A DNA stretch of 64,000 nt, taken from NCBI RefSeq assembly GCF_003957375.1, contig NZ_CP025473.1:1699501-1763500 (forward strand), read 5' to 3'. The notes beneath the pieces were generated by a model. It searched no databases and was not told the DNA's origin. It saw only the letters and a program-made list of their open reading frames with translations. Origin of the DNA: Enterococcus mundtii (GTDB taxonomy: Bacteria; Bacillota; Bacilli; Lactobacillales; Enterococcaceae). A program made the translations under genes and the position numbers. Shown here piece after piece: positions 38,261-60,038 of the stretch. The stretch's first letter is position 1. Each line of letters opens with the position of its first letter.

Positions 38261-40024
38261 CTATCGTTGATCAGCGAGCGTTTCTTCAATATTTCCCACG
38301 ATATTCTCTACTGTCAGACCATTTTCCGCTAATAGTTCCGATGCTTCATAACGATCATGAAATGCTTTATCTAAGCCGTAAGTTTGTACAAGGATCGCAG
38401 CATCCCCCAAATAGCCAGCAACCATTTGTCCATACCCGCCCTCCAAGATACCATCTTCAAGTGTAACTACTATATCGTGGGTTTCTTTGAGTTCATCTAG
38501 TAATTCAGTGTCTATCCCAGAGATGAATGCTGGATTGATCACCGTAGCAGTTAGCTGGAGAGTTTTCTTTAATTCAACAGCCACTTTTTCTGCCAAACCA
38601 TAAAAATTACCTACACCTATAATTGCTACTTTTTCGCCTTTTTGAATGACTTTGTTCTTATATAACTGGCTGTAATCTGTCCGATCTACTTCACCAGAAG
38701 AAGTGATTGGACCGACTGGTACGCGGATTGCCACTAATTGATCCGTTTGATCGATCGACCATTCAAGCATCGCTAAGTACTCTTCTTTCGTAGTTGGGGC
38801 TAAGTAGACTAAATTAGGGATATGGCTCAAAAATGGAATATCAAAGATCCCTAAATGACTTTCATCATTCATTCCGTTTACAGAAGCAAGTGTCACGAGG
38901 ATTGTACCTGATAAGCGATTCAGCGCTAAGTCATGGGAGATTTGATCATAACTTCTTTGTAAAAACGGTGAATGGACTGCCCATACTGGTTTTACTCCGC
39001 CTTTGGCTAAACCAGCAGTCATCGTTGCCGCATGTTCTTCAGCAATTCCTACATCCACAAATTTTGCCCCGACTTGTTGGCGTTGCTCTGGCGAAAATAA
39101 AATCATCGGTGTCCCTGCATTTACGGCTACTACTGTCGGATCTTCAGCCATTTTGCGTAATAAAAAGTCTGTTGTTATGCTGCTGTAGGTTTCTTCCCCT
39201 TTCGATTGCAGATACTCACCTGTTTCGAGACTAAACGGTCCACCCGCATGGAACTTTTCACGATTTTCTTCTGCAAAGGAGTATCCTTTTCCTTTGACGG
39301 TATGGATATGTAGCACAACCGGCGTATTTTGATCTTTTACTTCTTTGAATAACTCGATCAAAGCAGCTAAATCATTGCCTGCTTCCAGATAATGATAATC
39401 AAGTCCTAATGCTTTAAAGAAATTGTTCGTAGCTTGACCATTCGTTTCCCTTAGCTCTTTGAGATTTTTGTAAAGTCCCCCATGATTTTCTGCGATCGAC
39501 TGGTCATTATCATTGACGATAATGATCGTATTCGTGCCTAGTTCAGAAATATTGTTCAAACCTTCATAGGCTAAGCCACCCGATAAAGACCCATCGCCAA
39601 TCACTGCAATGACATTATTTGTTTCATTTTTCAAATCTCTTGCCTTAGCTAGACCGTTTGCTAAAGACAATGAAGTCGATGTATGACCGATCGTGAAGAG
39701 ATCATGTTCGCTCTCTAATGGGTTCGTGTAACCTGAGACTTCCTGGTAATGCGCTTGGTCCAAAAACGCTTGTGCTCTTCCTGTCAACATTTTATGCACA
39801 TAAGTTTGATGTGAGACATCAAAAACAAATTGATCTTCTGGTGAATCGAACACATAATGTAGCGCCACCGTCATTTCAACAACACCTAGATTTGGGCCAT
39901 TATGTCCACCGTATTGGCTGATTTTTTCCAATAACGCGGCACGTGCTTCCTCTACCACTTGTTGAAGCTCTTCTTGTTTCAATTTCTTTAGATCTTGAGG
40001 ACCTTTTATTCGTTTTAATAACAT
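38261..40024 (-). CDS. 1-deoxy-D-xylulose-5-phosphate synthase-like transketolase
   Basis: 587 residues, a little shorter than classical Dxs (about 620). N-terminal PNLGVVEMTVALHYVFDSP, SHQTYVHKMLTGR, TPP-binding IGDGSLSGGLAYEGLNN with IIVNDNDQSIAENHGG, then VDVGIAEEHAATMTAGLAKG with the catalytic Glu, HSPFLQRSYDQISHDLAL (usually YSTFLQRAYDQ), and a transketolase C domain. Enterococci make isoprenoids through mevalonate, and no other MEP gene is in the window, so the product may feed pyridoxal or thiamine synthesis or be a different keto-sugar. Hence no symbol. Confidence 0.85.
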   Translation of the reverse strand: MLLKRIKGPQDLKKLKQEELQQVVEEARAALLEKISQYGGHNGPNLGVVEMTVALHYVFDSPEDQFVFDVSHQTYVHKMLTGRAQAFLDQAHYQEVSGYTNPLESEHDLFTIGHTSTSLSLANGLAKARDLKNETNNVIAVIGDGSLSGGLAYEGLNNISELGTNTIIIVNDNDQSIAENHGGLYKNLKELRETNGQATNNFFKALGLDYHYLEAGNDLAALIELFKEVKDQNTPVVLHIHTVKGKGYSFAEENREKFHAGGPFSLETGEYLQSKGEETYSSITTDFLLRKMAEDPTVVAVNAGTPMILFSPEQRQQVGAKFVDVGIAEEHAATMTAGLAKGGVKPVWAVHSPFLQRSYDQISHDLALNRLSGTILVTLASVNGMNDESHLGIFDIPFLSHIPNLVYLAPTTKEEYLAMLEWSIDQTDQLVAIRVPVGPITSSGEVDRTDYSQLYKNKVIQKGEKVAIIGVGNFYGLAEKVAVELKKTLQLTATVINPAFISGIDTELLDELKETHDIVVTLEDGILEGGYGQMVAGYLGDAAILVQTYGLDKAFHDRYEASELLAENGLTVENIVGNIEETLADQR

Positions 40025-40186: not shown

Positions 40187-40564
40187 TTATTTCTTAGATG
40201 AATCGTTCACAATGATTTTAATCATTTTTTTTGGATTTCGACGCTTGTCACTAATAATTTGATAACTAACTAGAACGATCAAAAACAAAATCGCGCCTAT
40301 CAAAACGTACAATATTTGTGTTGTTTCTCCCAATGGTGGTAAAACATTCTTCTTAGGCGGAGCGCTTGGTGTCACTGATTCTTTCGGATCTCTAGTATTC
40401 GGCTTTGTAGGGCTTGTTTCTTGTGTAGCGTTTGAGTCAAACTCTAGCTCTCCAATGACTTCAATTGTATTAGAACTAGCTTCTATGAGCATCTGTGGCA
40501 ATCCAACGATCAATAGACCTAAAACCATGAACAAACAAAGAATTGTTTGTTTTTTTTGTTTCAT
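40187..40564 (-). CDS. small sortase-anchored or membrane-anchored protein (LPPLGE motif)
   Basis: 125 residues: signal peptide (about 1-30, ILCLFMVLGLLIVGLPQMLI), short linker rich in Thr/Pro/Ser, LPPLGE near residue 77, then a membrane helix (TTQILYVLIGAILFLIVLVS) and a long basic tail. The layout is that of the small LPxTG-type proteins that accompany WxL loci, but the Thr of LPxTG is Leu and the tail after the helix is unusually long (about 28 residues). It is the last gene of a four-gene operon with the giant GLUG adhesin. No sortase gene is in the window. Confidence 0.65.
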   Translation of the reverse strand: MKQKKQTILCLFMVLGLLIVGLPQMLIEASSNTIEVIGELEFDSNATQETSPTKPNTRDPKESVTPSAPPKKNVLPPLGETTQILYVLIGAILFLIVLVSYQIISDKRRNPKKMIKIIVNDSSKK

Positions 40565-40585
40565 CCAATCACCTCACAATTTGAA

Positions 40586-41242
40586 CTATGGATAAGGATC
40601 GCCAGCTTCATCTAGGGCTTCAATGTTCAACGTCAACGTACTTGCAATTGAGATTGCTCCTTTATCCGTTGGAAAATCAAGAATATCAGTATCAACTTCT
40701 CCTTTAAAAGTAAAAGTCGCTGCGCTATCTCCTTGTAGATCACTAGGACGTGCATTCGGTGAAGCCAAGGTCATCAAGTCTCCTGATAAATTTGAATTTA
40801 CTGCCCCATTTTCAATCAAAAGATTGTTGCTCCCTAAACTAACAACCAACGTTAACTGATCGATTGCTGAGATATCTCCAGAAGAAACTGTGTAACTTCC
40901 TAGACTGATTTTTACTGGACGACCCGAATGATTGGTGATCTTATGCTCTCCACCTAAAATCGTCTTATAGTCTTCTGGTTCAGTGAAGAAAACAGCTTTT
41001 AATGGTAACGTCACATTCAACCACTTATCTGGATTTCCTGGTTCTGGCGCTTCAGGATCTGTGTTATCAAATCCTAAAGTTCCATTGATCTCCACATCTG
41101 CAGTCGTATCAATCGACCCACCTATTGAATTATCGATCGTTTGGTCCGCTCCGTTGATGATAATATCAGCTTGAACACTTGCCCCTGTTGCTAAAATCGT
41201 GCCGAACATCAATCCTGTTGCTAAAATATTTTTTACTTTCAT
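40586..41242 (-). CDS. secreted protein with adhesin-like C-terminal domain
   Basis: 218 residues: a signal peptide (MKVKNILATGLMFGTILATG, cleavage after ASVQA), no anchor, no WxL motif. The block WLNVTLPLKAVFFTEPEDYK and HKITNHSGRPVKISL can be aligned with the C-terminal region of the giant adhesin (IHVTLPVRMAFNVLDDQVTS, YQVVNHSTTTELTVSF), and the ends (ASTLTLNIEAL / KLSLHLAAKIN) are also similar. Strong AAAGGAG site. It lies between the anchored small protein and the membrane-bound accessory protein and may be the repeated subunit or adaptor of a surface complex. Family unknown to me. Confidence 0.6.
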   Translation of the reverse strand: MKVKNILATGLMFGTILATGASVQADIIINGADQTIDNSIGGSIDTTADVEINGTLGFDNTDPEAPEPGNPDKWLNVTLPLKAVFFTEPEDYKTILGGEHKITNHSGRPVKISLGSYTVSSGDISAIDQLTLVVSLGSNNLLIENGAVNSNLSGDLMTLASPNARPSDLQGDSAATFTFKGEVDTDILDFPTDKGAISIASTLTLNIEALDEAGDPYP

Positions 41243-41301
41243 TTTGTTATCTCCTTTATTTATCTCTTTATATTCTAAAGCATGATTGCTTTATTCCGTC
41301 T

Positions 41302-41832
41302 TTACTGATTGACATTGATGGTCACGTCAACCGTCGTTTTACCCATAAGCTTTTTATTTTCTAAATCATAAAACTCTAATTCCACTACTCCTGGATGCGT
41401 GCCTGTCGTTAACTCTTTTGCCAATGTTAATTCGGTTACTTCATATCCAGGCTCCAATAAACCCGTTTCATACAGTGTTTCTTTAGAATCCTTTATGGAC
41501 AATATTGCTTGCTGCCCATAACGATTGGTCGGTAAGTTTTGGATCCAAATGTTTCCCGTTTTACCATCCGCATTGACCCTGACTTCCGGATACACATTGA
41601 TAGTGACATTACTATCGTCTACTGCTTGGTTGGCATATTTTTTCAATTGGTCTCCTGTCATTTTTTCCGCATGTTTGATCTCGGGAAAATCATCCGACAA
41701 AATCTGCGTTGGTTGGTTATTGGCATACCAATACCAACCAATCGCAACTAACACGAGCAATAATAAAAGAATTGCCAGTAATCTTTTTTTCTTTTGTTGT
41801 TCATTCTTTTCACTTAGTTTCTGTGTGATCAT
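41302..41832 (-). CDS. single-pass membrane protein with extracellular beta-rich domain
   Basis: About 176 residues from the ATG at 41832 (AAGG five bases upstream; a TTG at 41856 overlaps the adhesin stop codon). N-terminus is basic and Lys/Gln-rich, then a membrane helix (LLAILLLLLVLVAIGWYWYA), then an outside domain whose YGQQAILSIKDSKETLYETG and TGTHPGVVELEFYDLENKKL recall Ig-like folds of cell-surface proteins. It follows the giant adhesin with a near-zero gap, so it is translated with it. Type II orientation is inferred. Possibly holds the adhesin at the membrane. Confidence 0.6.
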   Translation of the reverse strand: MITQKLSEKNEQQKKKRLLAILLLLLVLVAIGWYWYANNQPTQILSDDFPEIKHAEKMTGDQLKKYANQAVDDSNVTINVYPEVRVNADGKTGNIWIQNLPTNRYGQQAILSIKDSKETLYETGLLEPGYEVTELTLAKELTTGTHPGVVELEFYDLENKKLMGKTTVDVTINVNQ

Positions 41833-41852
41833 GTTCACCTTCTTGTGTGTGT

Positions 41853-44800
41853 TCAATTTATCTTCGCAGCAAGGTGTAAACTTAGCTTGCCTGTTACTTT
41901 ATTATTTTGTGTGGCATCACCAAAATATTTCCCTGTAAAATGAAGTGACATTCGAGAATCTGCTGACATTGATTCAGTCCACTGTGCACCAGCAAAAGTA
42001 CTTTCTTGTCCAACTAAAGGCTTGTCAGATAAGGTCGCACCTCTTCGTTGCAAATATAAAAACATCGATTCGCTTGTCACCTCTTGTTCCAATGAATCTA
42101 AAAAGACAATATTCGAAGTACTTGCTAATTCCACATCGTTTTTGGTATGGAAGGAAACTGTCAGTTCTGTCGTTGTCGAATGATTGACCACTTGGTAATC
42201 ATCGCTAGTCACTTGATCGTCTAAGACGTTAAAGGCCATCCGAACCGGTAACGTTACATGGATTGCTAGATCACTTTCCACCACAAAAGGAATGGTATAC
42301 TCCCATGTAGCTGTTTCGCCATTAACCAATGACTCGCTGACAACGATTTTGCCAGTCGTCGCTCCTTCTTTTGACGTATTGGGATATTGGGTGAACCCTT
42401 CAATTTTCAAGGTAGGATATTGACTGATATCCAAATATCGTCCAATTTGACGATCCATATCTTCACGAGACATTCCTAACGTTGCTTTTTGTTCCCTTGG
42501 ATTTAAACGATCAATGTTTAATCGTTCAAATCCATTCGCGGTAATTTGATAACGACTTCGATTATCCGATATTCTTGGCTGCACCACGTTATCTTTGAAG
42601 TTGTCCAGTCTGCCATTGACCTCTGCATGGAAAATTTCCACGATCTCGCCTTTCGCAACTGATAGTCTTCGATTTGTTCCGAAACCATCCAAAATCTTCA
42701 CTAAGTCTCCACCCTCTACTGAAAAAACTGTATCAGCAGTCATATTGTTCAATGGACCATTTTTGATAGTGGAACCTTCAAAGTGTTTAAATTCATAATA
42801 AAGCTCATTCGCGAACCTGTAATGAATCTCTTGATTAGATAATCCATATTCATAAGTTGCAGTAATCTGTGTTTGATCTCGGTTCAAACTAAATGTTGCA
42901 GCCCGTGTATCGTGATCGAAGTCAGTATATTTAATTCCTCGTATATTCAAAGAATGACCAAACTGATAAGTGACTGGCACATCGACCGTAGCTAATACTG
43001 TGCCATTTTTCGAAACCTCTACTCGTGCAGATTTACCATTCAACGAATCAGGAAAACTTACAAAACGTGCGTCATAATCCTTTGTTTCCGTTTGATCTTT
43101 GAATACTGTGACAAAGTCCATTGCCTGGTAATCTGTTTCCCCATATCCATAGTTCAAGACTTGATTCTTTGGCTGGAAATCTGTGTAATTTCCGATACCA
43201 GTAAAACCAATGACGCCTTGTTCATTGATGACCCCGATGGAAAAACGTTCGGCATTATTCCGATTGATTTGGAATGTACCTGTTGTGATCTCTCCTGCCA
43301 ATTCCGCTTGATATGGATTGAATAAGTAAACAGGTTGTCCTGCAAGATCTAGAGTTACTGTTACTTGGTTTGTTGAGACAGCTGTATCTACTTCTGGTTG
43401 GATCGAGTTAAAGAACTCGGATGTTTGTGACCCGTTCGTCTGCCACTTCAAATAGGGATAAGTTCGATTAGCACTGCTCTCCATAGCAAAACCTGTGAGC
43501 CACTTTTCACCAAACCCAAGCTCAGTTATAGTTCTATCGATCAATCCTGTAGTACTACGAGCTTCACCCACACCAGTTGTCGTCGTTTTCCTTGTAGTGC
43601 TTGCATCAAAATAAACATTACTTGCTGTAATCCCAGTTGTAGTATTCGAAATTGCTTCACCTGCAGTAAAACCTGCGACGAACAAGTTTGTGAGCTTTGC
43701 AGTTGCAGTCGAATCGACTATTCCGATCACCCCATGTCCGTTCGTTGAACCAACGCTATAATTATCTATCATCGTTAAGTGACCATTTCCTTCGAGCTTA
43801 CCAACAAATCCCGCGGAACCATTGGATAGACTTCCAAGCATATATCCATTATGATAACTCTCATTGATCGTCGCATTTCCTGCTAAACGACCAATAAACC
43901 CGCCAACATAACTATTCCCACTTCGTATATCACTCGAATTGATACTGCGTTCAATCTGAACTTGACCAATTTCTGTAACATAGCCAATCAGTCCTCCACG
44001 ATAGCTGGTAGTTGAAGAATTAACTGTCGAGCGCGTCTCACTAAGCGTGTCGGTAATCGTTACTGTACCAGATGCTTGACCGATCAAACCGCCTAAATTC
44101 AAAGTATAATTATTCCCACCAGTAAAATTCACTTTTGAACTAGAGTGCCCCATGGTAAGCACGCCTGTCGTGCGACCGACGAGACCCCCTAGTAGACCGT
44201 TTGAAGTATTCGAATGAAGATTACTTGATACTTGGCTATTCGTAATTATTAGTTGTCCAGTGTTGTTTCCAACAAAAGCCCCGCTTCCATCTGACTGGTT
44301 TGAAACAATACTACTTTTACTGTCTATCCTGATATTATCAAGTTCAACAATACTCCCTGTGCTGATTTGGGCAATCACTCCTGCAGTATAGTTGGTATAT
44401 GACTGTCCTCTAGTATTTGACACCCTTAGATTTTCAAATGTTAGATTCTCAATTCGTAAAGGATCGTTTCCGACTGAATGAATAAAAGCTAAGTCTAATT
44501 CTCCACTAGTCAACGTCAAATTCTTGATGATCGCATGATTACCGATCAATTTCGCTCCATACACTCGTCTGCCTGAAAAAGTTCCTGCATTTGCCATATC
44601 GATTGATATTCCATCTTCTGGTTCAATCGAATAGTCTTTATCATCTTCATCAAAAGGCACTTGACTGTTCAAAAAACGACTTAGATCCTCTGCTGTTCGA
44701 ATGACCGTTTGCACATAATTTGCTGTCACAGTTGCATCTTCTGTCCCCATCGAAAAAGTAGCTGTTCGATTTTTTTGATCAACATTTGTTACGATACTTC

Positions 44801-45421
44801 CTGTGCCTGTCACGCTAAATCCAACAAAACGATATCCAGCATTTGCTTCAGCCGCCTGAATCGTTGTTGTATCCCCTTCGATAAAATTCGTCTGGACAGC
44901 AATTGGATCAGCTGCACTTCCTGTTAAGGGATCACGCCCCAGTGTCAAACTCATTCGCCGTGCGGTAAAGCCCACAACTCCTTGTTGATTGATCACCCCA
45001 ATTGATACATTTTTAACATTGCCTTGATTGAAACCGAAAGTTCCTTCTGTGGCTTCACCTGCTAAGCCAGAACTATATGGATTGAATAGTTTCAATGGCT
45101 CTTGTTTTAGGTCTAACGTTACGGACACTTGATTGCCTGTCACTGGATGATCAACCATCGGATCGATACTTTCAAAAAACATAGATGGTTGGGTATTTTG
45201 GGTCTGCCAACTAAGATATGGATAGGTTTTATTCGTGCGCTGATCCACTGAAAAGTCAGTTTGCCAACGACTTCCGAAACCTAGTGCAGTGGTTGTTTCT
45301 TCAATCAACTCTAGCGTTGTTTTCGCTTCTCCAACTCCAGTCGTCGTTGACTTATTCGTCGTACTGGAATCAAAATAAACATTAGTCGCCGTGATACCCA
45401 TCGTACCTGAAGTAATGGGTT
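41853..45421 (-). pseudogene. giant GLUG-type adhesin, C-terminal part (after frameshift)
   Basis: The frame continues the preceding open frame after a one-base shift at the G6 run at 45422-45427. It contains a second copy of the adhesin module (beta-repeat near RMSLTLGRDPLTGSAADP, then GLUG-like repeats GGLVGRTTGVLTMG, GGLIGQASGTVTI, GGFIGRLAGNATINESYHNG), a second FFNSIQPEVD linker, and a C-terminal domain with VTLPVRMAFNV and VNHSTTTELTVSFH. It ends KLSLHLAAKIN with no LPxTG motif or membrane helix, so it must be held by something else. The frame has no ribosome-binding site of its own at 45401. Confidence 0.75.
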
Positions 45422-47842
45422 CCCCCCTGTAAATCCTGCGACAAAGAGTTGGCTGAGTGTCACAGAATCCGTTAATTGATTGTTCCCAATCACACCATTA
45501 CCATTGGAAGAGCCGATACTATAACTATCCATGATGTCAAGAACACCATCGCTATCGGCCTTACCAATGAACCCAGCAGTTCCTAGACTTGTATTTCCTT
45601 GGACGTGCCCATTGTGATAGCTTTCCTCAATTCTAGCATTTCCTGACAACCTTCCGATGAATCCGCCCACATAACTATTATTTCCTCGCATATCACCAGC
45701 ATTGATACTTCGTTGGATCGTGACCTCTCCTGAGAATTTCACTAGACCAATCATACCACCTCGATATGTCCCATTTAATGAATTGATGATTGTTTGGCTT
45801 TCACTTATAGAATCAGTGATCCTTACCTCGCTACTGGTTGCACCCACTAGTCCGCCGATATTTAATGTGTATGAATCACCTCCAGTAAAAGTAACTTGAG
45901 AAAGGCTACTATCAATGATCAACGGCCCGTCATTTGCACCAACAAGTCCACCTAACAGTCCGTTGGCGGTGTTGCTATGCAACGTTCCTAAAACTTCACT
46001 GTTTTTGATCATTACTGAACCTTGATTGTTCCCGATCAATCCTGCATTACCATCAGGCTGACTAGCAGCAATTTGACTGCTTTCATCGATCGTGATATTT
46101 TCAAGCTCAACTGACTTCCCACTCGCTACTTGACCGATGATCCCAGCCACATTAGAGTGTGTTCTGGTATTATTAACGAGTAATCCTTCTAATTTCAAGT
46201 TTTCTATACGTGAAAGGTTGTCGCCATCGATCGTTTGAATCAATCCAAGAGAAGCTCCTGAAGCTACTAATGAAAGGTTTTTGATGATTGTACCATTTCC
46301 GATCAGATTACCAGAAAATTGACTACGACCTGTAAAACCACCTTCTCCGGACATGTCAATCGTTTGATTTATCTCTGGTTCGATCGCGTACGTCTGTTCA
46401 TTTGAATCATAAGGAAATTCGCTTCGTAAAAATTTCCCAAGATCCGCTTTATTGCGAATGACCGTCGAAGCATACTCAGCTGTGACTGTCGCATTTTCAG
46501 TTCCCATGGTGAAAGTGGCTGTGCGATTTGCTAAATCAACATTTGTAATCTTACCGTCACCTGTCACATTGAAGCCGGCTAAACGATAACCAGGAGAAGG
46601 TGTATCTGCTGTGACCTTCGTTGATGTCCCCACCAACAGATTGGTCGTCGGCGTAGTTGGATTACTGGCACTTCCAGCTTGTGGTGAACGTGCTAAAGTT
46701 AGCATTCGATTAGTCAACTCATAACGAGCGGTAACTTTAGTATTTTGAGATCCCATCGTAAACGTACCTGTTCGATTGGCTGTATTCACATTCGTGATCG
46801 AACTTCCTGTACCACTTACATCAAATCCCGCAAACTGATACCCCGTCGCTGGTGCTGCAGCAGTCACCGTTGTTGTTGCACCTTGTGCTAATACGGTCAC
46901 AGGAGCCGTTGGATTCGCACTAGCTCCTTGTGATGGATTTCTAGCAGACGTCAAAGTATGAGCGGGTAGTTCTATAAAACTGCCACGAATTGCTTGATCA
47001 ACTGTTGCAAAATAGTTTGCATAATACATATGAATATAATTAGCGGCATAATAAAAATACGTATTGAAAACCCAATCCAAATCAACCGAAAAAGCGTTTG
47101 TCCTTTGACTTGTATTTTTTGCGTCTCTGACTCTTTCAACACGTATAGTATATTGTTGAAAGTCAGCTAAGGAACCTTCATTACTATTTGAGGGAGATAG
47201 AACTGGCGCTTTTATTTGATAAGGATTTGTTTCTTTAATAGTAAATCGAAAATCTTCATTGCTATGTTCAACCGAATTCACTCCGAATTGATACTGACTT
47301 TTTGCAGGCATTTCTGAATAACTCACACCTGCATACAATAAATCGTTAGTATTGCGGTATAAAAATTGTCTAGGCAGCATAACTCGCCCTTCAATACTAT
47401 TTCCAATTCTGTTACCTAACTGATTGTTGCCTGACCATACAATGGATGCCCGGCTATCATTTAAAAAATAATTCTTAAAAGTTGTTGGAAACTGTGTACG
47501 ATTTCCACTAGCACTGCCCTGCAAGAATTGAGAAATCCAAAAATTATTTAAACTATTTAGCTGTTGCAGACCTCTTGGCTCCGTTTCTACTAAAGTTCCA
47601 CCTTCCACCACTTTTTCGGTTGATACCTCTACTCGTTCACTCTCATCCTCAATCGTCTCATCACCTTCTACCAATGTTTCTTCTGTTGTTTCCTGCGTTT
47701 GGCTAACATCTTCTACATGTTCTTCTACCCTTAACTCGTTGATTGCCTCAGCAATAACACTGATACTATTGCCTAATGACGAAAAAAGCAGCAAGATAAT
47801 TACAATAATATGTAAAAATTGTTTCTTATAAAAATGAGTCAT
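45311..47842 (-). pseudogene. giant GLUG-type adhesin, N-terminal part (before frameshift)
   Basis: 843 residues as translated. Signal peptide (about 1-32), acidic Thr/Glu-rich segment, a unique region with RTQFPTTFKNYFLNDSRAS, two bacterial-repeat/InlB B-repeat-like domains (near SARNPSQGASANPTAPVT and TLARSPQAGSASNPTTPTT, each ending ATFTMG/GTFTMG), then GLUG repeats (GGLVGANDGPLIID, GGLVGATSSEVRI, GGMIGLVKFSGEVTI, GGFIGRLSGNARIEESYHNG). It ends in nonsense (GGNPLLQVRWVSRRL) after the G6 run; by one base more or fewer it would join the next part to give about 2,000 residues. Strong AGGAGG at 47850. First gene of the operon. Confidence 0.8.
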
Positions 47843-48607
47843 TTCTTCCTCCTACTCTATACGTATTACTTGACGTGACGTAATCTGCTGATTTTTTGGC
47901 AGAAAGTTATACTCAATGTACATGGGTTACTTCATTCTATTCATAATTTTTTCTTATTTAATGGTTGATTCCATAAACAAAAGCCCTCTAAAATAAATCA
48001 ACCAACCGTCATAATGGACTATTCATGTTTTTTGAAAGATCCACTAGTTATATTCAACTAATTGAATGTATGTCCCCCCCTTCTTAATCAGGATGAAATC
48101 GCGATGTTAAATAACGTTTTTACACAACTATCATTTCTACATCTTTTTATTATAATAACACTATTAAAAAATTTTTTTATTTTTATTTTTCTAAAATAAA
48201 TAAAAATAAAATACTATAAAATTGATTTACATTTAGAAATCCTTGTTACAATCGATATTTTTATTAATTACAGAAATTTAAAGATACTTTTTTTTTGTTA
48301 TTTAGAAAAAAATATCACACTATACACCAAAGAAATCTTCACAGGCAAAAAATATTGCCAACTAAAAAAATAACGAAATTATTCAAAATAACAAAAAATA
48401 TAAAAAAACATTTTTATCCCTAGCTGATCTTACTGATTATGAAAAATTTTTTTAATTATAATGATTTTTTATTTCAAACGTTTGTTTTTTTTGTATAATT
48501 ATAATAGGTATATTTTCCCCTTACCTTATTTACCTATGTGTTTTATCTTTATAGTCAAAATCGATTACTTACATATTTACAGAAAAAAAAGATTGGAAGC
48601 TAGAATA
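47843..48607. other. AT-rich divergent intergenic region with A-tracts
   Basis: Between the leftward adhesin operon and the rightward Mga-like gene. 48160-48480 is almost entirely A/T with many runs of 4-8 A or T, suggestive of intrinsic curvature. No convincing ORF. Part of the upstream frame extension of the Mga-like gene falls here, but the ATG at 48608 is the better start. Confidence 0.6.
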
Positions 48608-50104
48608 ATGGAAAATTTATCCATCACCTTACAACTTGATAATCAGTTTAAACGACAATATCAAATATTAAATTTAGTACATAAAACCAACCAATTAACA
48701 ATCAATGAACTTGCACTTAACTTAGAGAAATCAAAACCTACACTAAAAAAGGATATTGATGAAATCAATCAAGCACTGATTGAGCATTGTGTTTCACTAA
48801 AAATCGATCAAAAAGGTTTATTATCATTCCAATACAAAAAAGCAATGACAATCGATTCGATGATCACCTTATTAGTCAAAAGAACCCTCACTTACCAAAT
48901 CATGGATCTGTTACTTCATAATATGACTTACTCAACCGATGAACTAGCCGATACCTTGATGGTCTCTAGAAGTACGATTTTTAAAACGATTCGTCATATG
49001 AATAACCTCTTGAAAGAATTTAGTGTGACGATCACCACCGGACCATTGACTTTATCAGGTAAAGAAGAAGATATTCGTTTTTGTTTTTTTGCATTTTACT
49101 CAAGCTTTGGCGACAGTGCGATCATTGATGCTGATAGCGAAATCGATGCTCAGTATTTAGTCGACGAAGGACATAAAAGAGATCACGCTTTTTTACATTT
49201 CAGTCATTTTCGTGCCGCTCTGTGGCTATCCATTGCAAAAGTACGATGGAAATGCAAAAAGCTATGTAGCCTGAATCGAAGTATTAAAGTGTTGATCAAA
49301 AACAGCAAAGGCTTCTCTTCGCTTGAACCATTATTGCAGGATTACTATCTTTCACGCTCAAAAGAAACACTTTCCTTAAATGAAATAATATGGTTATACT
49401 TGGTCTCACTTCATTGTATTTCCTACACACGTCAAAACAATTTAGATGATGGTCGCTCCTATGCATTTTATCGAGAAGAGTCTCCTGGTGTCATCGAAGC
49501 AATCCAACGTTTTCTAGCGACTGTTTTCCCAGAACATATGGTCAAGGACGGTACGCTAGAAAAAATGGAAGCTTATTTGGTCAATGCACGTTTACTTTCT
49601 AAAATGAGCCATACTTATGAATTACATTCACCCACCATGGTGACGCAAATGAAGGAACGATATTCTGCAATCTACCAAGTGTGGCTTGAAAAATTGACTC
49701 TTCTAAAAAATAATCCTTTGTTCGGTTTTGTTCATATTGACTATCTTGCAGCTGCGTTGACAACATTTCATGCTTCACTTTTAATGAAACAATCGAAGCG
49801 GCATTTACGCATTATATTTACGATCCAAGGACCACCATCTTTAGATGATTATATCCTGAATGAGATTGAGACACTTTTTACGCAACGGTCAACGATCGAA
49901 TTTCAAATCGAACATGCTGTAACAAAAGAATCAATCGAAATGTATCAAGCTGATCTAGTTGTTTGTAATTATGATCTCCATCTGATCGATGAACAGATTT
50001 GCCAAATCCATCGAATCTCCAATGTTCCGACGATTGCGGATTGGCGCCTTTTAATGGAAACAATCACTTATTTGTCTTTGCCTGCTTATTTAGAAAATAC
50101 ATAA
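48608..50104 (+). CDS. Mga/AtxA-family transcriptional regulator
   Basis: 498 residues from the ATG at 48608 with GGAAG upstream. HTH_Mga-type region (KTNQLTINELALNLEKSKPT, LKKDIDEINQAL), a second HTH (YSTDELADTLMVSRSTIFKT) and a helical middle (PRD-like). The C-terminal 90 residues (LRIIFTIQGPPSLDDYILNE, ADLVVCNYDLHL) resemble the EIIB-like domain of Mga, MafR and AtxA. Such regulators control surface genes and often recognise DNA bends. It is divergent to the giant-adhesin operon and next to the WxL cassette, so both are candidate targets. Confidence 0.85.
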   Translation: MENLSITLQLDNQFKRQYQILNLVHKTNQLTINELALNLEKSKPTLKKDIDEINQALIEHCVSLKIDQKGLLSFQYKKAMTIDSMITLLVKRTLTYQIMDLLLHNMTYSTDELADTLMVSRSTIFKTIRHMNNLLKEFSVTITTGPLTLSGKEEDIRFCFFAFYSSFGDSAIIDADSEIDAQYLVDEGHKRDHAFLHFSHFRAALWLSIAKVRWKCKKLCSLNRSIKVLIKNSKGFSSLEPLLQDYYLSRSKETLSLNEIIWLYLVSLHCISYTRQNNLDDGRSYAFYREESPGVIEAIQRFLATVFPEHMVKDGTLEKMEAYLVNARLLSKMSHTYELHSPTMVTQMKERYSAIYQVWLEKLTLLKNNPLFGFVHIDYLAAALTTFHASLLMKQSKRHLRIIFTIQGPPSLDDYILNEIETLFTQRSTIEFQIEHAVTKESIEMYQADLVVCNYDLHLIDEQICQIHRISNVPTIADWRLLMETITYLSLPAYLENT

Positions 50105-54332: not shown

Positions 54333-55653
54333 CTAATTGTCAGGAACTGAACTCAATTCCCATATCAACGTTGTCGAATAACTTATCGCCTCTGGATTTG
54401 CCCCTTTGGGCACGTTGAGAGTAACACTCTCTTTTGCTGTATCGGCATCACCAAAACGATAAATCCAGGTACCTATTCCTTCATCACCTTGTGCTTTTAA
54501 CAAAGTAAAACGATTACCTGGTATTAACTCACAGGTAACAGATTGTAGTCTAGGTGCTGTTCCACCTTGAGCAGTAATGAGTTGTTGATTTGAAAAAATT
54601 AAACTGGCACCATTAAGCAATTGTTGTTCTTTACTTTTAAATTGTTCTTTTTGTGTCACGGCTAATTCCCAACCATTACGTTCAGATTCTAGTCGACGAT
54701 CACTGATCTGAATATAGTTTGGTCGTTCTTCCATTTCGTTTACCGTTCCATCCTCATTCAATAACCGTTGTAGTTGTGCATGATAAGTTTTATCATAAGC
54801 TGAAATAGCTTGTGAACCAAATTTAAAGGAAGAAACGAAATCAATACTCAATAGACCCTGATTTTCTAGTGGGTCAGGCTTACTTTCTGGATTCACTTCT
54901 ACTTCCGGATTCAATGGATCTAACGGAGCAATAGGTGAAGGGGAATCTACTTCGAATACAACATCATAATTAACAGTAAACGCACCTTCTCCTTCAATTG
55001 TTTGTGTTACTGCAATAACTCCCTCTTTATCTGTATTTGAACTATGTGTATTATCAAATCTCACAAATTCAAAACTAAACTGTTCTTTTTCTAATTCCGT
55101 AAATTCTTCATGGTATGAGAAAAAAGTCGATGCTATTTGAGACATTTCTTCTTTTGATGCACCAAATGGAACAACTATATCATTTCGTGTAGTTAATTGA
55201 TTCACACGCAATAGATGATAGCCATTTCTAGTCAACATATAATACGCAAACGGGTACCCTTGCGTCTCTAGACGCATGTCATTATTTCGAGAAACAAACA
55301 CATTATTTCCTAATTCATTAGTTACCGGATTATTAATTGTACTTGTATTAATTTTAGTAACATCTCCATAATTCAATGATACATCGGTCAAATTCTCATT
55401 CCATTCATTAATCATCTTATTTATAGAATCTGTAAATGTTATTAACCTCAGAGCATGAGATAATAAACTATGTTCCTCTGAGTTTCTATAAATATTAATA
55501 TGAGGGCGTGTTCCCACACGTTGTGTTCGTAAGCTCTGTTCTCCAAAGGTCGGAATTAGCTGTGGTTTTTCTCCAGTTAATAAACTGAGTGAACTAGTAA
55601 ACTCGTTTAATTTAGTTTCATTCCCCTGAGTTGCCTTAAAGCCAATACTATGC
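54333..55653 (-). pseudogene. long WxL adhesin, C-terminal part (after frameshift)
   Basis: About 440 residues that continue the upstream frame after a one-base shift at the G4 run 55654-55657. It has a middle domain (HSIGFKATQGNETKLNEF...), a linker with DPLNPEVEVNPESKPD, and a full WxL domain: GLLSIDFVSSFKFG, RRLESERNGWELAVTQKEQF, GTWIYRFGDADTAKES, LIWELSSVPDN. The first ATG in this frame (55658) has no ribosome-binding site, so without frameshift correction this part would not be made. With the N-terminal part it makes about 1,390 residues. Confidence 0.75.
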
Positions 55654-58492
55654 CCCAAATGATGTTATAAGAGACAACTACATCTTTTGAAAGGTGATCA
55701 GTAGTTACTTTGATAGTTGTTGTTTTTTTACCTACACTTTGAAGATCAAACTCATCAATCAATTCAACATGAAAATCTTCAACAACATGACCTTTAGGTG
55801 ATTCAGAAACTGACTTTATGAATTTTTTTAAATCAATATCTTTTGTATCACTTCCTAAAATAATATCTTGAGTTTTAGTTTCTACGTCCAATTTTTTTTC
55901 ATTATATACCGCACGTATTTTTGTGTTTTCGGATCCCATAGTAAATTGTGTATTTGGATTTTGTTTATCTGATACTAAACTACCTGAGCCGATCACTTCC
56001 CATTTTTCAAATTGATATTTTTCATTCGGATTCGCTTTTAACAACGTGTTTTCTCCTTCAAGCATGGTCGTTTTTTCTGCTGAGGGATTCCCTCCTTCAC
56101 TCGGTATAGCTTCGAAAGATAAGGAGTATTGTTGCTGTTCATAAATGTACGTCACCATTTGTTCATATTCTTTAAAAATCCCTGTCGAATTTACCGGTTT
56201 GTCTTTTAAAACATAACCTTCTATTTCTTTTGGGTTAGTAGTATACGGTTCATTCAAGTTTCCCTCAATTATATCATCGTCCAATAATTTTTTACCTTCT
56301 CCATCAGTGTACCGTATAGTGATATTTCCGCCCTTTTGTGTTTCAAACATAAACGTTAAACTTGCATTTATATCGAGAGGAGTAAATTCATACGTTTCTT
56401 CATCATAAAATCCATTTTCTGTCAAAATATCTTGAATGGAATAATTCGATTGGCTAATTATTCCATCTGGAATAGCACTTTCTATTTTTATAGGTATATC
56501 GATATATCCTTCTATTTGTTCTTTAGGAAATACAGTATTTCCATTTTGATCTAGATAAAAAATATTTATGACTGATTTTTCATCAGGATATTCTTTACTT
56601 CCAGCTATACTTATTCGTTTATAGTTTTCATTGGTGATATCAAATCTAGGGTCACTAAAATTCATAATGTTTTTTCCAATCTGACCAAATCCTCGACTAG
56701 TTGAACTTACAAGATTCGGTTGTTCCCAAAGAGATTCTCTGTTTTGCCAAACACTTATATATGAATCGAGAATACTTACCTCAGCTCTCGTTGCTAGAAA
56801 GAATAAATCGGTAGCGGCATTACTTCTAATCTCTACGTTTCGAGGGTTTATTATTGAAAATTTAGTGTCTGCACCTTTTAAGCTAATAATAGCATTTAAT
56901 TCAGTATCAGGTTCATCTTCATCATCAGGTTCATAAGGTCCATCCTCAATACTTTCACCAGGAGAAGAAGGAAGTTCTGGGATAATATTATTATCCTGAT
57001 TAACCAACAATACTTTCATTTTTGCACCTTGTTCTGTTCGTAAACTAGTACCCTTTCTACTAAATTGAATTCCCATTTGGTTTGATGTATAAATATTGAG
57101 TTCACCATTATCTTTTACAGTGTAGTTCTGTGGTCGATTATTTGAGGCACTTTGATCTCCTAGCGGCGCTACACCACCCTCTTGATTTTGATAAAAGTAA
57201 TTTACTTTTGCTTTTTCCTCAATTATATAGTTTTGAAAGTGACGAAAGACAGCTGGCTGATTCGCATTCTTGTTATTCTCTCGATAAAAATTTACAGTAG
57301 CACCTTTTTTTACTAAAAACTCAGAATTTTTTCCTGTGACAGCAGCGCCAAAAACATTCCTTGGATACCATACAGCAGCTCTGGGACTATTAAATACTAT
57401 GCTCGTATACGTACTGTTTTCTTCAACAACAAAACTTCCTAATGCAAAATTTGATCTACTGGTCCTTATGTTTGTATTTCCTCTTATGATAACTTCAGAT
57501 CTTCTGGCGTCTACAGCCCTACGTGATCCAGAAATTATGGTGTCTTCAATTAGAATCCGCCATCGTCCACCAGCTACTGAATCGTTTCCTCTTATAAAAT
57601 CCTTATTAATAGCGGAAAATAAAATATTTATGTTATTTAAATGTAATATTTTTTCTGTATCTCTCGGAGGATCGCCTAGCAATATGCTGTTTCCTTCCAA
57701 ATACAAGGTATATCCATTACCATCTATTTCTAGATTTTCTGTTCTTTGCTTAAAATTATCGTTACTAAAAGTAAATATGTCTCTCATCAATTTTATTTTT
57801 TTCACTGAATTGTCTTCAATAGCTTGAACTAATTGGTTCCAATTAGAAATCTCTACGTATTCAGTTTTTATATCATTATACTCAATAAATTCATTGGTAT
57901 TTTTTGTTAAATTTTTTTCTTCCGTATCTTTGGGAATGTTTGTCGAACTTTCTTCAAAAGATTCTGATATTTCATTTTCTTTATTATCTGTATCAGGTTT
58001 GATTAGTATATTCTCATCCTCAGTTATTTCTATAGTCATTTTTTCTTCACCAATAGATACCTCAAATACTCCAGATTCTTCGAATAAAATGGGTAAAGTA
58101 AATTGATCTTGCGCAAGTTCTGATCGAATTAACCAAATATTTTCATCTGAAGTTTTTTTAATTTCCAAACTATCCAACAAATTATTTGTATCAATTTTCC
58201 CTTTTGGTGGTAATTTGATTCTAATTTCATATACTTTTTGATTTGAAAAAATATCTACTTGTATTGGTTCATTTACCTTTCCTTGCATTTGTGATTGGGT
58301 AAAGAAAAAGATTGGTGAACTTATCTGATCTTCTAAATCATTCTCAATAGGTGGAGATTCTACTTGTTGTTCCTGTTCCTTTGTTTCCATCATTGTTTCT
58401 GCATAGACCATTCCTAACGGTATAAATACTGTTTGAATCATTAGAATTATCATCACTACAAAATATATTGATTTTCTTAAACTTGAGGACAT
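55607..58492 (-). pseudogene. long WxL adhesin, N-terminal part (before frameshift)
   Basis: About 961 residues as translated, from the ATG at 58492 (AAGGAG eight bases upstream). Signal peptide, paralogous N-domain (FFFTQSQMQGKVNEPIQVDI), a beta-helix or pectate-lyase-like adhesive region (LMRDIFTFSNDNFKQRTENL ... SFVVEENSTYTSIVFNS), MucBP-like domain (ITIRYTDGEGKKLLDDDIIE), a bacterial repeat (YSLSFEAIPSEGGNPSAEKT) and a further beta domain ending in HLSKDVVVSYNIIWG, after which the frame turns to nonsense (IVLALRQLRGMKLN). First in the cassette after the WxL-interacting protein, with a short gap. Confidence 0.8.
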
Positions 58493-58524
58493 TGTATTCA
58501 CTCCTTTTCATTCCTCTTATTCGC

Positions 58525-59568
58525 TTACTCTTTTTTTCTGTTATGCCTAGATAGATAAAGAATGATCCCCAGCAGTAAAACAAGTAATATGATTGAGCCA
58601 ATCATCCACCAATTGATGCTCGTATCGAGCATCACATCCGCTCGATTCAATGCACGCGCTTCATCTGCATCGATCGTAAAATTCCGTTCCCATTGCCATT
58701 CCTCTTCTCCTGAACGTGCCGTCATTTTCAATACGTAGTCACCATTACGAAAGCGATCCCCATCTAAGGAAATCGGAAAATTGAAATTGGAGTTTGGCGC
58801 CATTTGCATCTGTTCTTGACTGACTTGGTATAAAATTTCTTCTTCGCCCACTTTTTGAACCGTTGCTTCGATTTCCAAACGATTGATAAATGTCGGGGTG
58901 AAGTTTTGTAGATTGGCACTGATGACATTGCGATAGTTGAGTTGATCGGCAAAAACATCCAACAACTCTAAATCAGGTTGCACGGTCTCTTGACTGTTAC
59001 TCACCACCACACCGATGATATACGCAAACTCATTTTGGATGGCGACTCCTTCTTCGTTACTCGTCTCTTCTGTTGTGTCTTCTTTGACTTCTTCGATCCG
59101 TAAACCACCCGCTAAGAAACCTTCAAAGGCTTCTTTAGGCATGTTCAGATCAAGCGTAACGGTCTTTGTTTCATTGCCACCAAGCTCAATAATTTCTGGT
59201 TGTTCAATCAACTCAGCCAGCGAATGCTTGAGTGTAGGGTCTGCTTTTTTCGCATCTTGTCCGTATTCTACGACCCCCATCACGTTAGTATAAGCAGTAT
59301 GTGGGGTGATTTGGATTTTCTTAGCTTCTGCGTTTGCGTTTTGTAGTTTCAACGTTAGCTTTTCTGTCGCATCCGGTGCCAGGGTTAACTGAAAGTAACC
59401 TTCGTTGCCTGACTTTTGGTTGTCCGAGAATTCCGGTGTTACATAAAAATTCAATGTTCCCTCTTCTGCGCTCACGCGCATCGATGCCAAAAAACTAAAG
59501 AACACCATAAGGAGTACTACACCTACTTGTTGGATTTTATTTTTTCGATATGTATTTGCTTGTTTCAT
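58525..59568 (-). CDS. WxL-interacting protein (DUF916/DUF3324)
   Basis: 347 residues from the ATG at 59568 (GGAAGGGG upstream; the frame reaches 59637 without a site). Signal peptide, then the DUF916 domain (FYVTPEFSDNQKSGNEGYFQ ... GNETKTVTLDLNMPKEAF ... EGFLAGGLRIEE), DUF3324 (FAYIIGVVVSNSQETVQPDL ... PNSNFNFPISLDGDRFRNGDYVLKM, read in two segments), a C-terminal membrane helix (INWWMIGSIILLVLLLGIIL) and a basic tail. Such proteins bind WxL proteins and peptidoglycan. It heads the duplicated cassette; the WxL gene start lies about 30 bases downstream. Confidence 0.92.
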   Translation of the reverse strand: MKQANTYRKNKIQQVGVVLLMVFFSFLASMRVSAEEGTLNFYVTPEFSDNQKSGNEGYFQLTLAPDATEKLTLKLQNANAEAKKIQITPHTAYTNVMGVVEYGQDAKKADPTLKHSLAELIEQPEIIELGGNETKTVTLDLNMPKEAFEGFLAGGLRIEEVKEDTTEETSNEEGVAIQNEFAYIIGVVVSNSQETVQPDLELLDVFADQLNYRNVISANLQNFTPTFINRLEIEATVQKVGEEEILYQVSQEQMQMAPNSNFNFPISLDGDRFRNGDYVLKMTARSGEEEWQWERNFTIDADEARALNRADVMLDTSINWWMIGSIILLVLLLGIILYLSRHNRKKE

Positions 59569-59591
59569 TCGTCTACCCCTTCCTTTAAAGA

Positions 59592-59621
59592 GAGTAGCGC
59601 TACAAAATTGTAACGCTACTC
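59592..59621. repeat. inverted repeat in the WxL operon leader
   Basis: Arms GAGTAGCGCTACA (59592-59604) and TGTAACGCTACTC (59609-59621) differ at one pair. It lies 24 bases before the start of the WxL-interacting protein; it could be an operator or a leader hairpin. Confidence 0.5.
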
Positions 59622-59712
59622 CATTAATATAAGACAATGGATAGGCTACAATTAACTAGACAGAAAAATTAAGGTGTGTAGACTAGAAGAAAAAATACCA
59701 GGAGGAATTTTT

Positions 59713-60003
59713 ATGTCTAAGAGAACACGAAGAACTTTTTCACAAGAATTCAAGCAACAAATCGTCAATCTTTACTTAGCTGGAAAGCCACGTGTAGAAA
59801 TCATTCGAGAATATGAACTAACGGCTTCAGCATTTGACAAATGGGTAAAGCAATCTAAAACGAGTGGTTCATTCAAAGAAAAAGATAATCTTACGCCTGA
59901 ACAAAAAGAATTGTTAGAACTACGTAAAAGAAACCAGCAATTAGAAATGGAAAATGATATTTTAAAGCAAGCAGCGCTGATATTCGGACGAAGAGACAAG
60001 TAA
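59713..60003 (+). CDS. IS3-family transposase OrfA
   Basis: 96 residues from the ATG at 59713 with AGGAGG upstream. N-terminal HTH (RRTFSQEFKQQIVNLYLAGK ... YELTASAFDKWVKQ) and a leucine-zipper-like helix (LRKRNQQLEMENDILKQAA). Binds IS ends. A U UUA AAG heptamer at 59961-59967, in the correct reading frame, can shift ribosomes -1 into the OrfB frame to make the full transposase. Confidence 0.9.
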   Translation: MSKRTRRTFSQEFKQQIVNLYLAGKPRVEIIREYELTASAFDKWVKQSKTSGSFKEKDNLTPEQKELLELRKRNQQLEMENDILKQAALIFGRRDK

Positions 60004-60038
60004 TCGATGCGAATAAGCATCTTTACCCTATATCAGCG

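What the first reader, a model, noticed from the sequence alone, without database searches (positions are those of the whole stretch)
40187..47842. Four-gene surface operon that looks like a distinct adhesin assembly system
The order is giant unanchored GLUG adhesin, membrane-bound type II protein, small secreted protein, small LPPLGE protein, with little or no gap. None carries a WxL domain, so it is not a normal WxL cluster. The small secreted protein and the giant's C-terminus share VTLP...F and Y-x-(I/V)-x-NHS segments, which suggests a common docking or polymerisation domain. The small LPxxG protein could then anchor the complex.
Basis: partly seen in the sequence, partly recalled or inferred. 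Interest (0 to 1): 0.8.

Follow-up and report, generated by a model that had tools for sequence, protein, structure and literature searches.

The report
Wall-anchored strand-swapping adhesin system
A conserved four-gene set in enterococci and relatives appears to mount a large adhesin on the cell wall by passing a short protein strand from one part to the next, as pili of Gram-negative bacteria do, and the wall anchor seems to be little more than that strand on a tether.

Summary
Here, however, the giant adhesin is two overlapping frames; two congeners have one open frame. Its C-terminal domain and the small secreted protein (SMALL) are the same domain (profile match 99.1%, E 5.5e-19); neither matches WxL (0.1-0.8%). 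The order giant, membrane protein (TYPE2), SMALL, small sortase-type anchor recurs: of 52 non-redundant TYPE2 genes, 52 adjoin SMALL and 50 a large adhesin.

New here: the small anchor carries, at its mature N-terminus, SMALL's own N-terminal strand motif (46 of 52 anchors, p<0.05). SMALL's model resembles donor-strand filament subunits (archaeal thread, TasA, CfaB; weak scores). A motif model from SMALL picks the N-terminal strand as best site in 4 of 4 E. coli type 1 pilins, not in the chaperone or adhesin. The giant lacks the strand before its domain (4 of 56), as tip adhesins do. Best reading: anchor strand into SMALL, SMALL strand into giant, by strand complementation; TYPE2 a membrane chaperone or platform (weakly supported). 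WxL clusters seem to share the anchor logic. No complex, binding or filament was tested.

The parts
40187..40564 (-). small sortase-type anchor protein, 125 aa: signal peptide, strand motif, linker, LPPLG, membrane segment, basic tail
   Evidence: NF053819 at 66 bits, cut-off 47; adjacent to SMALL here and in congeners L058, L059
40442..40471 (-). proposed donor strand of the anchor (NTIEVIGELE, residues 32-41), near the mature N-terminus
   Evidence: same place as in the other anchors; alignment to own SMALL p 0.012 against shuffles; its near-copy L058 has p 0.09 in the motif test
40328..40342 (-). LPPLG sortase-type motif of the anchor
   Evidence: sequence
40586..41242 (-). SMALL: secreted 218-aa protein, signal peptide, N-terminal strand, linker, beta-sandwich
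   Evidence: no Pfam family at E 1; model mean pLDDT 74.6, about 90 over residues 81-218
41072..41101 (-). proposed donor strand of SMALL (ADVEINGTLG, residues 48-57), pLDDT mostly under 50 in the single-chain model
   Evidence: conserved in the family; motif model; model
40589..41029 (-). acceptor domain of SMALL (about residues 72-218)
   Evidence: Foldseek to donor-strand filament subunits; profile match to the giants' C-termini
41302..41856 (-). TYPE2: membrane protein, basic N-terminus, one membrane helix, outer Ig-like domain (about residues 86-184)
   Evidence: model mean pLDDT 83.2; Foldseek Ig-like, incl. pilus chaperones and unrelated Ig domains
41853..45401 (-). LARGE adhesin, C-terminal part in its own frame (1182 aa): Flg_new_2, mucin/carbohydrate-binding module, acceptor domain
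41865..42281 (-). acceptor domain of LARGE (residues 1041-1179 of that frame); LARGE proteins as a group show no strand motif ahead of it
45311..47842 (-). LARGE adhesin, N-terminal part in a different frame (843 aa, ends in an out-of-frame tail)
   Evidence: single open frame in L058 and L059
48461..50104 (+). divergent AcpB/EbpR/MafR-type (Mga-like) regulator, possibly of this operon
   Evidence: NF053736 174.8 bits, cut-off 130; regulators similar to this one in only 13 of 63 loci, the window included

Best explanation
A WxL-independent surface system that presents a large adhesin by strand complementation. SMALL is a beta-sandwich with a groove (acceptor) and a free N-terminal strand (donor). 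LARGE has variable binding modules and the same acceptor domain at its C-terminus, but no free donor strand, so it sits at the outer end. The small anchor is a donor strand on a flexible linker, fixed to the wall by sortase (in leaderless forms, first displayed from the membrane). The chain is wall - anchor strand in SMALL - SMALL strand in LARGE, with one or many SMALL units in between. TYPE2 holds the acceptor subunits at the membrane, as a chaperone or platform. Shown by computation: the conserved gene set, the shared domain, the shared strand motif, its absence before LARGE's domain. Inferred: that the strand fills a groove, the direction of the chain, polymerisation, display of leaderless anchors, and the role of TYPE2.
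For: Shared domain: hhalign 99.1%, E 5.5e-19. Gene set: 50 of 52 non-redundant TYPE2 genes with LARGE, 52 of 52 with SMALL. The strand motif [DE]-[IV]-x-[IV]-x-G-x-[IL]-G of SMALL is found in 46 of 52 non-redundant anchors at p<0.05 (42 at p<0.01), with the cognate SMALL and its kin left out of the model; the best site lies at residues 28-47 in anchors with a signal peptide and at residues 2-22 in leaderless ones. Controls: 3 of 1575 other ORFs (first 60 aa, loci L105-L149) reach the anchors' median score and all 3 are anchor copies dropped as redundant; at score 6 or more, 26 of 1575 against 44 of 52. LARGE: motif in the 60 aa ahead of its domain in 4 of 56 at p<0.05, near chance (domain start set by a crude pattern). 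Fold: the first five Foldseek hits of SMALL are the Sulfolobus thread 7pnb (E 3.0e-4), a TasA fibre 8aur, CfaB 4y2l and 4y2n, and the Pyrobaculum pilus 7ueg; entries with PapK, CsuE and PapA are ranks 7, 11 and 14. Positive control: the SMALL-derived motif picks the N-terminal strand as best site in FimA, FimI, FimF and FimG (4 of 4), not in FimC or at the N-terminus of FimH; column-shuffled models do so, within one residue, in 5 of 2000. Pilins except FimH/PapG have an N-terminal extension of alternating hydrophobic residues, and Pap's P4 site accepts only glycine (passages of PMC3960871).
Against: No complex could be modelled and no binding or filament was tested. Only one Foldseek hit is below E 1e-3, with TM-score 0.42 over the whole chain and rmsd 15.6 over 213 columns; ranks 6, 8-10, 12 and 13 are unrelated proteins. 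The strand was left loose in the single-chain model, so a groove was not seen directly. Six of 52 anchors do not reach p<0.05, among them L058, the near-copy that stands for the window's own anchor in that test. Anchors do not match their own SMALL significantly better than other SMALLs (p 0.084). In the Fim control the single p-values are weak: 0.018 to 0.61 over the whole protein, 0.0025 to 0.21 in the N-terminal region. TYPE2's chaperone-like hits are mixed with unrelated Ig domains. In the window's genome LARGE is split in two frames.
Confidence: 0.6

Rival explanations
1. The shared N-terminal strand is a recognition tag: TYPE2 (or another membrane factor) binds the same strand on SMALL and on the anchor to bring them together, and the acceptor domains bind peptidoglycan rather than strands.
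For: TYPE2 always stands beside SMALL in the loci held, though TYPE2 was the search handle for them; it has an Ig-like domain that could pair with a strand. WxL domains are described as peptidoglycan-binding (abstract of PMC10599100).
Against: Does not explain why SMALL's model resembles donor-strand filament subunits, nor why the strand motif follows the pilin pattern, nor why LARGE has the domain but not the strand.
Confidence: 0.2
2. A strongly diverged WxL (csc) cluster: SMALL = CscB, LARGE = CscC, anchor = CscD, TYPE2 = the WxL-interacting protein, descended from one ancestor with the W-x-L motifs lost.
For: Same layout as the csc cluster (PMC1534035). Anchors of both systems match NCBIfam NF053819: in the own genome the window's anchor and L093 over the cut-off, L094 and L099 under it, WxL-cluster anchors mostly over it; of ten anchors of this system from other loci all match it, two over the cut-off. 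A similar sharing of an N-terminal motif between anchor and small protein is seen in WxL clusters.
Against: Profiles do not match: SMALL-WxL 0.8%, LARGE C-terminus-WxL 0.1%, and TYPE2-WxLIP only aligns membrane helices (9.6%). TYPE2 has an N-terminal membrane helix and one Ig domain, WxLIP a C-terminal helix and two (abstract of PMC10599100).
Confidence: 0.15
3. An ordinary sortase-assembled pilus or a plain secreted adhesin with unrelated neighbours.
For: The anchor has a sortase motif.
Against: SMALL and LARGE end without LPxTG, membrane segment or basic tail; no sortase enzyme was hit among the ten window proteins scanned (the rest of the window was not scanned for one); the neighbours are conserved together.
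Confidence: 0.03

Closest known systems
csc / WxL gene clusters (CscA-D; small WxL, large WxL, WxLIP, small LPxTG)
   Same: Four surface genes; large and small protein share a C-terminal domain; one membrane Ig-type protein; very short LPxTG protein that matches the same NCBIfam model; AlphaFold work reports a WxLIP strand filling a gap in WxL to complete its sandwich (passages of PMC10599100).
   Different: No WxL domain and no DUF916/DUF3324; TYPE2 has an N-terminal membrane helix and a single Ig domain; many anchors here lack a signal peptide (31 of 52 by my reading).
Chaperone-usher pili (type 1, P, CFA/I)
   Same: Acceptor fold resemblance, N-terminal strand motif with alternating hydrophobics and glycine, outer adhesin without a donor strand.
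   Different: Gram-positive; no usher would be needed or expected (not searched for); no curated-family or PDB sequence match to pilins; wall anchor that is a strand peptide with a sortase signal.
TasA/TapA fibres and archaeal threads (Saci_0406/0405)
   Same: Among the first Foldseek hits; N-terminal strand complementation in an organism with one membrane; [quoted passage not shown]
   Different: No large tip adhesin or sortase anchor is described for them in the passages and abstract read.

Membership tests
csc / WxL cluster | WxL domain at the C-terminus of the small and large secreted proteins | tested here: not met
   no Pfam WxL in the window proteins nor in 42 SMALL members at E 0.1; hhalign 0.8% and 0.1%
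csc / WxL cluster | CscA/WxLIP protein with DUF916 + DUF3324 | tested here: not met
   no such hit for the window's TYPE2 at E 1; not among the 25 of 35 families shown for 40 TYPE2 members; hhalign aligns membrane helices only
csc / WxL cluster | very short LPxTG protein in the cluster | tested here: met
   window anchor NF053819 over the cut-off; ten others match, two over the cut-off
donor-strand-complemented filaments | incomplete Ig-like or jelly-roll subunit with a groove | tested here: inconclusive
   Foldseek hits to such subunits, one below E 1e-3; groove not seen, coordinates not available
donor-strand-complemented filaments | free N-terminal strand, alternating hydrophobics with glycine (sequence pattern only) | tested here: met
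   motif conserved in SMALL; its model picks the N-terminal strand in 4 of 4 type 1 pilins
donor-strand-complemented filaments | tip adhesin with pilin domain but no donor strand | tested here: met
   4 of 56 LARGE proteins have the motif ahead of the domain at p<0.05, near chance
donor-strand-complemented filaments | dedicated strand-donating chaperone | tested here: inconclusive
   TYPE2 Ig-like; FaeE, PapD, CsuC entries among many unrelated Ig hits
donor-strand-complemented filaments | subunits shown to polymerise | not testable with these tools
   needs biochemistry or electron microscopy
sortase-assembled pili | pilin subunits with their own LPxTG signal | tested here: not met
   the window's SMALL and LARGE have none

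The most novel reading that the evidence does not exclude
One mechanism covers this system and the whole WxL (csc) world: Gram-positive bacteria build adhesin chains by donor-strand exchange at the cell surface, and the very short LPxTG protein of each cluster, left unexplained in 2006, is a wall-fixed donor strand that imitates the N-terminus of its cluster's small subunit. WxLIP and TYPE2 would be two unrelated membrane chaperones. Many anchors of the present system would also be sortase substrates without a signal peptide.
Probability: 0.4. Interest if true: 0.9.

Novelty: new variant of a known kind. Interest (0 to 1): 0.75.

Why it matters
Siezen et al. (PMC1534035, section 12) wrote that the short LPxTG (CscD) peptides have very low homology, that aligning them is not informative, and that they may anchor the other proteins 'through as yet unknown interactions'. 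The strand mimicry found here gives a simple, testable answer for a widespread set of surface genes, annotated mostly as 'hypothetical protein' in the three plasmid regions opened, and perhaps for WxL proteins too. If true, donor-strand exchange, best known from Gram-negative pili and TasA, would also be a common way to mount adhesins on lactic acid bacteria and enterococci, and a short strand peptide could be used to test or block it.

Tried and rejected
Rejected: 'divergent WxL domain' as a sequence claim (0.8%); I had expected it. Rejected: the Mga/EbpR-type regulator as a fixed part (13 of 63 loci have one similar to the window's). A 16-column motif model was too wide and found only 9 of 23 anchors at p<0.01; I replaced it by the 10-column core after reading the anchors in full, so the core was chosen after looking; the jackknife, the control ORFs and the Fim control are the safeguards. 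My first anchor search missed the leaderless forms because it skipped the first residues and asked for a strict LPxTG; therefore understates the match for that class (14 of 24 at p<0.05). For the WxL pairs, 33 of 44 loci gave a pair. Dropped before the count: L095 and L097 (one broken gene), L085 and L205 (near duplicates), L091 and L093 (held again as window and L057), L094 (left out; its variant motif was not caught), and L058, L059, L062, L063, L064 and the second L061 copy (near copies); L099 was not among the pairs. In one search, 67 SMALL loci gave 52 anchors: L073 and L143 had no small ORF next to SMALL, the rest were over 80% identical to one kept.

Results against the reading: own-SMALL preference of anchors is not significant in this system (p 0.084), though it is in WxL clusters (p 1e-4) and in the own-genome test of both classes (12 pairs, p 0.0018; 11 pairs, p 0.0034), where several signal-peptide ends were mis-set. 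WxL anchors carry the WxL-type motif in 12 of 26 at p<0.05 and 14 of 26 by pair alignment, so the WxL extension is weaker. The WxL-type motif, built from 16 of 24 motifs that I picked by eye, does not pick the N-terminal strand in the Fim pilins. A first neighbourhood tally (66 of 66) was wrong because one SMALL and one fragment counted as LARGE; one search is the corrected one, and in two of its loci (L131, L137) LARGE lies on the opposite strand. The fetched loci were mostly the best TYPE2 matches: 20 stretches out of the places listed, and the 45 loci (two of them cut at a contig end); weaker TYPE2 matches were not examined for neighbours.
Full report
What is there. LARGE is in two overlapping frames here (41853-45401 and 45311-47842). 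At the same place two congeners have a single open frame of 2586 and 2584 aa (L058, L059). A divergent AcpB/EbpR/MafR-type regulator stands upstream (48461-50104).

Shared domain. With 16 sequences each, the SMALL family and the C-termini of the LARGE proteins align by profile with 99.1% probability, E 5.5e-19, over 153 columns. Against a WxL profile from 19 domains of the same genome the scores are 0.8% (SMALL) and 0.1% (LARGE C-terminus); TYPE2 against WxLIP aligns membrane helices only. Pfam gives only scattered weak hits: among 42 SMALL members seven families, the most frequent in 5 members (an alphavirus core peptidase model, best E 2e-4); among 40 TYPE2 members 35 families, the most frequent in 17 (CD1107-like, best E 0.0014), with ABC2_membrane_3 in 9 (best E 8.5e-6). 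I read these as chance or membrane-helix matches.

Conserved set. TYPE2 was found in 67 of 105 genomes of the family (E 1e-3), 60 of 395 sampled from the order (E 1e-6) and 5 of 398 sampled from the class, all five in the order; SMALL in 1 of 398 sampled from the phylum, the own genome. Named loci are in Enterococcus, Vagococcus, Lactococcus and Listeria ilorinensis (45 loci). On plasmids TYPE2 matches lie in 11 records of Enterococcus, Melissococcus and Leuconostoc. Of the three regions opened, E. gilvus and Melissococcus show the four-gene layout by size and order, Leuconostoc only TYPE2 and one more hypothetical gene; all these genes but the E. gilvus anchor are called 'hypothetical protein'. 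Of 67 TYPE2 ORFs in the stretches held, 64 have a LARGE over 400 aa and a SMALL adjacent; of 52 non-redundant ones, 52 have SMALL and 50 LARGE. LARGE's outer part varies: in ten examples scanned there are LRR-like DUF285, pectate-lyase-like adhesive, mucin-binding and Ig-like modules, some below the Pfam cut-off, and three with no Pfam hit at E 1e-3.

The anchor carries SMALL's strand. Reading the small genes beside SMALL showed the same N-terminal motif in both. A 10-column model from 25 non-redundant SMALL motifs, leaving out kin of the cognate, finds it in 46 of 52 non-redundant anchors at p<0.05 and 42 at p<0.01 against shuffles; the best site is at residues 28-47 in anchors with a signal peptide and at 2-22 in the others, that is, near the mature N-terminus. 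Of 1575 other ORFs only 3 reach the anchors' median, and these are anchor copies removed as redundant. The anchors come in two forms: with a signal peptide, and leaderless, where the strand follows the start Met closely and a sortase-like motif, a membrane segment and a basic tail follow (30 flagged without signal peptide plus L119, which I read as leaderless, of 52). Display of the leaderless form is an inference from its C-terminal signal.

Donor-strand evidence. The AlphaFold model of SMALL is confident from about residue 70 on and leaves the strand segment loose. Foldseek's first five PDB hits are the Sulfolobus 0406 filament (E 3.0e-4), a TasA fibre, two CfaB trimer entries and the Pyrobaculum bundling pilus; entries with PapK, CsuE and PapA are ranks 7, 11 and 14, and the ranks between are unrelated proteins of low probability. 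Only the first is below E 1e-3, and its TM-score (0.42) and rmsd (15.6) are poor, so this is a resemblance, not a proof. Strand complementation is described for threads (passages of PMC9715654) and TasA (abstract of PMC10151520). As a control I fetched the fim operon of E. coli K-12: the SMALL motif model's best site in the whole protein is the N-terminal strand in FimA, FimI, FimF and FimG, and not in FimC or at FimH's N-terminus; models with shuffled columns do this, within one residue, in 5 of 2000 cases. The individual p-values are modest (0.018 to 0.61 over the whole protein, 0.0025 to 0.21 in the N-terminal region); the weight lies in the four coinciding positions. That those positions are the donor strands is recalled knowledge, in line with PMC3960871 (passages), which says that pilins except FimH/PapG have such an extension and that Pap's P4 site accepts only glycine. 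LARGE has no such strand before its domain (4 of 56 at p<0.05), as expected of an outer-end adhesin.

Model. Wall - anchor strand into SMALL's groove - SMALL's strand into the next SMALL or into LARGE. TYPE2, with one outer Ig-like domain whose structural neighbours include FaeE, PapD and CsuC entries but also spliceosome and antibody Ig domains, would hold subunits at the membrane. The number of SMALL units per chain is unknown.

Link to WxL clusters. In the same genome the anchors of WxL clusters match the same NCBIfam model, NF053819, mostly over its cut-off; of the four anchors of the present system two are over it, and of ten from other loci all match and two are over it. The mature N-termini of WxL-cluster anchors resemble those of the neighbouring small WxL protein. 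Over 12 own-genome pairs of both classes cognates score higher than shuffled pairings (p 0.0018); over 26 WxL pairs p is 1e-4, over 24 pairs of the present system 0.084. Anchors of each class resemble small proteins of their own class more than the other (28.5 against 23.9, and 28.8 against 23.3). Published AlphaFold work reports that a WxLIP strand fills a gap in WxL and completes its sandwich; the word chaperone does not occur in that text. So the same logic may run in WxL clusters, with unrelated parts; but their motif is weaker (12 of 26) and does not pick the Fim strands.

Prior art. I saw no paper joining WxL or these anchors with donor strands in the rows listed. The library holds open-licence PMC papers only, most listings were cut at 20 rows, and one review (PMC3796261) holds both words once each and was not opened. 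Papers looked at: PMC1534035 (passages, section 12), PMC10599100 (outline with abstract, first part of the Results, passages), PMC9772566, PMC12537917, PMC9715654 and PMC3960871 (passages), PMC10151520 (outline with abstract).

Own-genome paralogues. Four TYPE2 sets exist: the window's, L054, L056 and L057. L057 has anchor, SMALL and TYPE2 but no LARGE beside it, while a protein with the acceptor domain, in an open frame of 994 aa, stands at C1:2513205 with no SMALL or TYPE2 match near it; the two may work together.

Noticed in passing
window 41853-47842: The giant adhesin gene is in two overlapping frames here but one open frame in two congeners (L058, L059).
   Followed up: partly
window 54333-58501: The neighbouring large WxL gene also appears split into two overlapping frames (964 aa without WxL, 441 aa with it), next to a WxLIP gene (58525-59637) and an IS3-like transposase pair (59674-60875; named from recall).
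   Followed up: no
L057 (G000:C1:1114500-1116108) and G000:C1:2513205-2513567: An anchor-SMALL-TYPE2 set without LARGE, and a LARGE-like protein away from any such set, in the same genome: possible partners in trans.
   Followed up: partly
L106, L112, L121, L116 and others: Small anchors that start with Met and the strand motif, with no signal peptide but with a sortase-like C-terminal signal.
   Followed up: partly
L151 (Melissococcus plutonius plasmid), L150 (Enterococcus gilvus plasmid): The set sits near carbohydrate genes (GH43, beta-phosphoglucomutase; GH1 and PTS), in line with the role proposed for csc clusters.
   Followed up: no
window 38261-40024: A transketolase/DXS-like gene (named from recall) lies directly downstream on the same strand; a 587-aa gene stands at the same place in L058 and L059.
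   Followed up: no
window 40586-41242, residues 25-34: SMALL of this species has a second, similar segment (ADIIINGADQ) right after the signal peptide, ahead of the main strand.
   Followed up: no
L023 (G000:C1:1765700): A short WxL-like protein (23.3 bits, below cut-off) beside a WxLIP and an LPxTG gene just outside the window.
   Followed up: no
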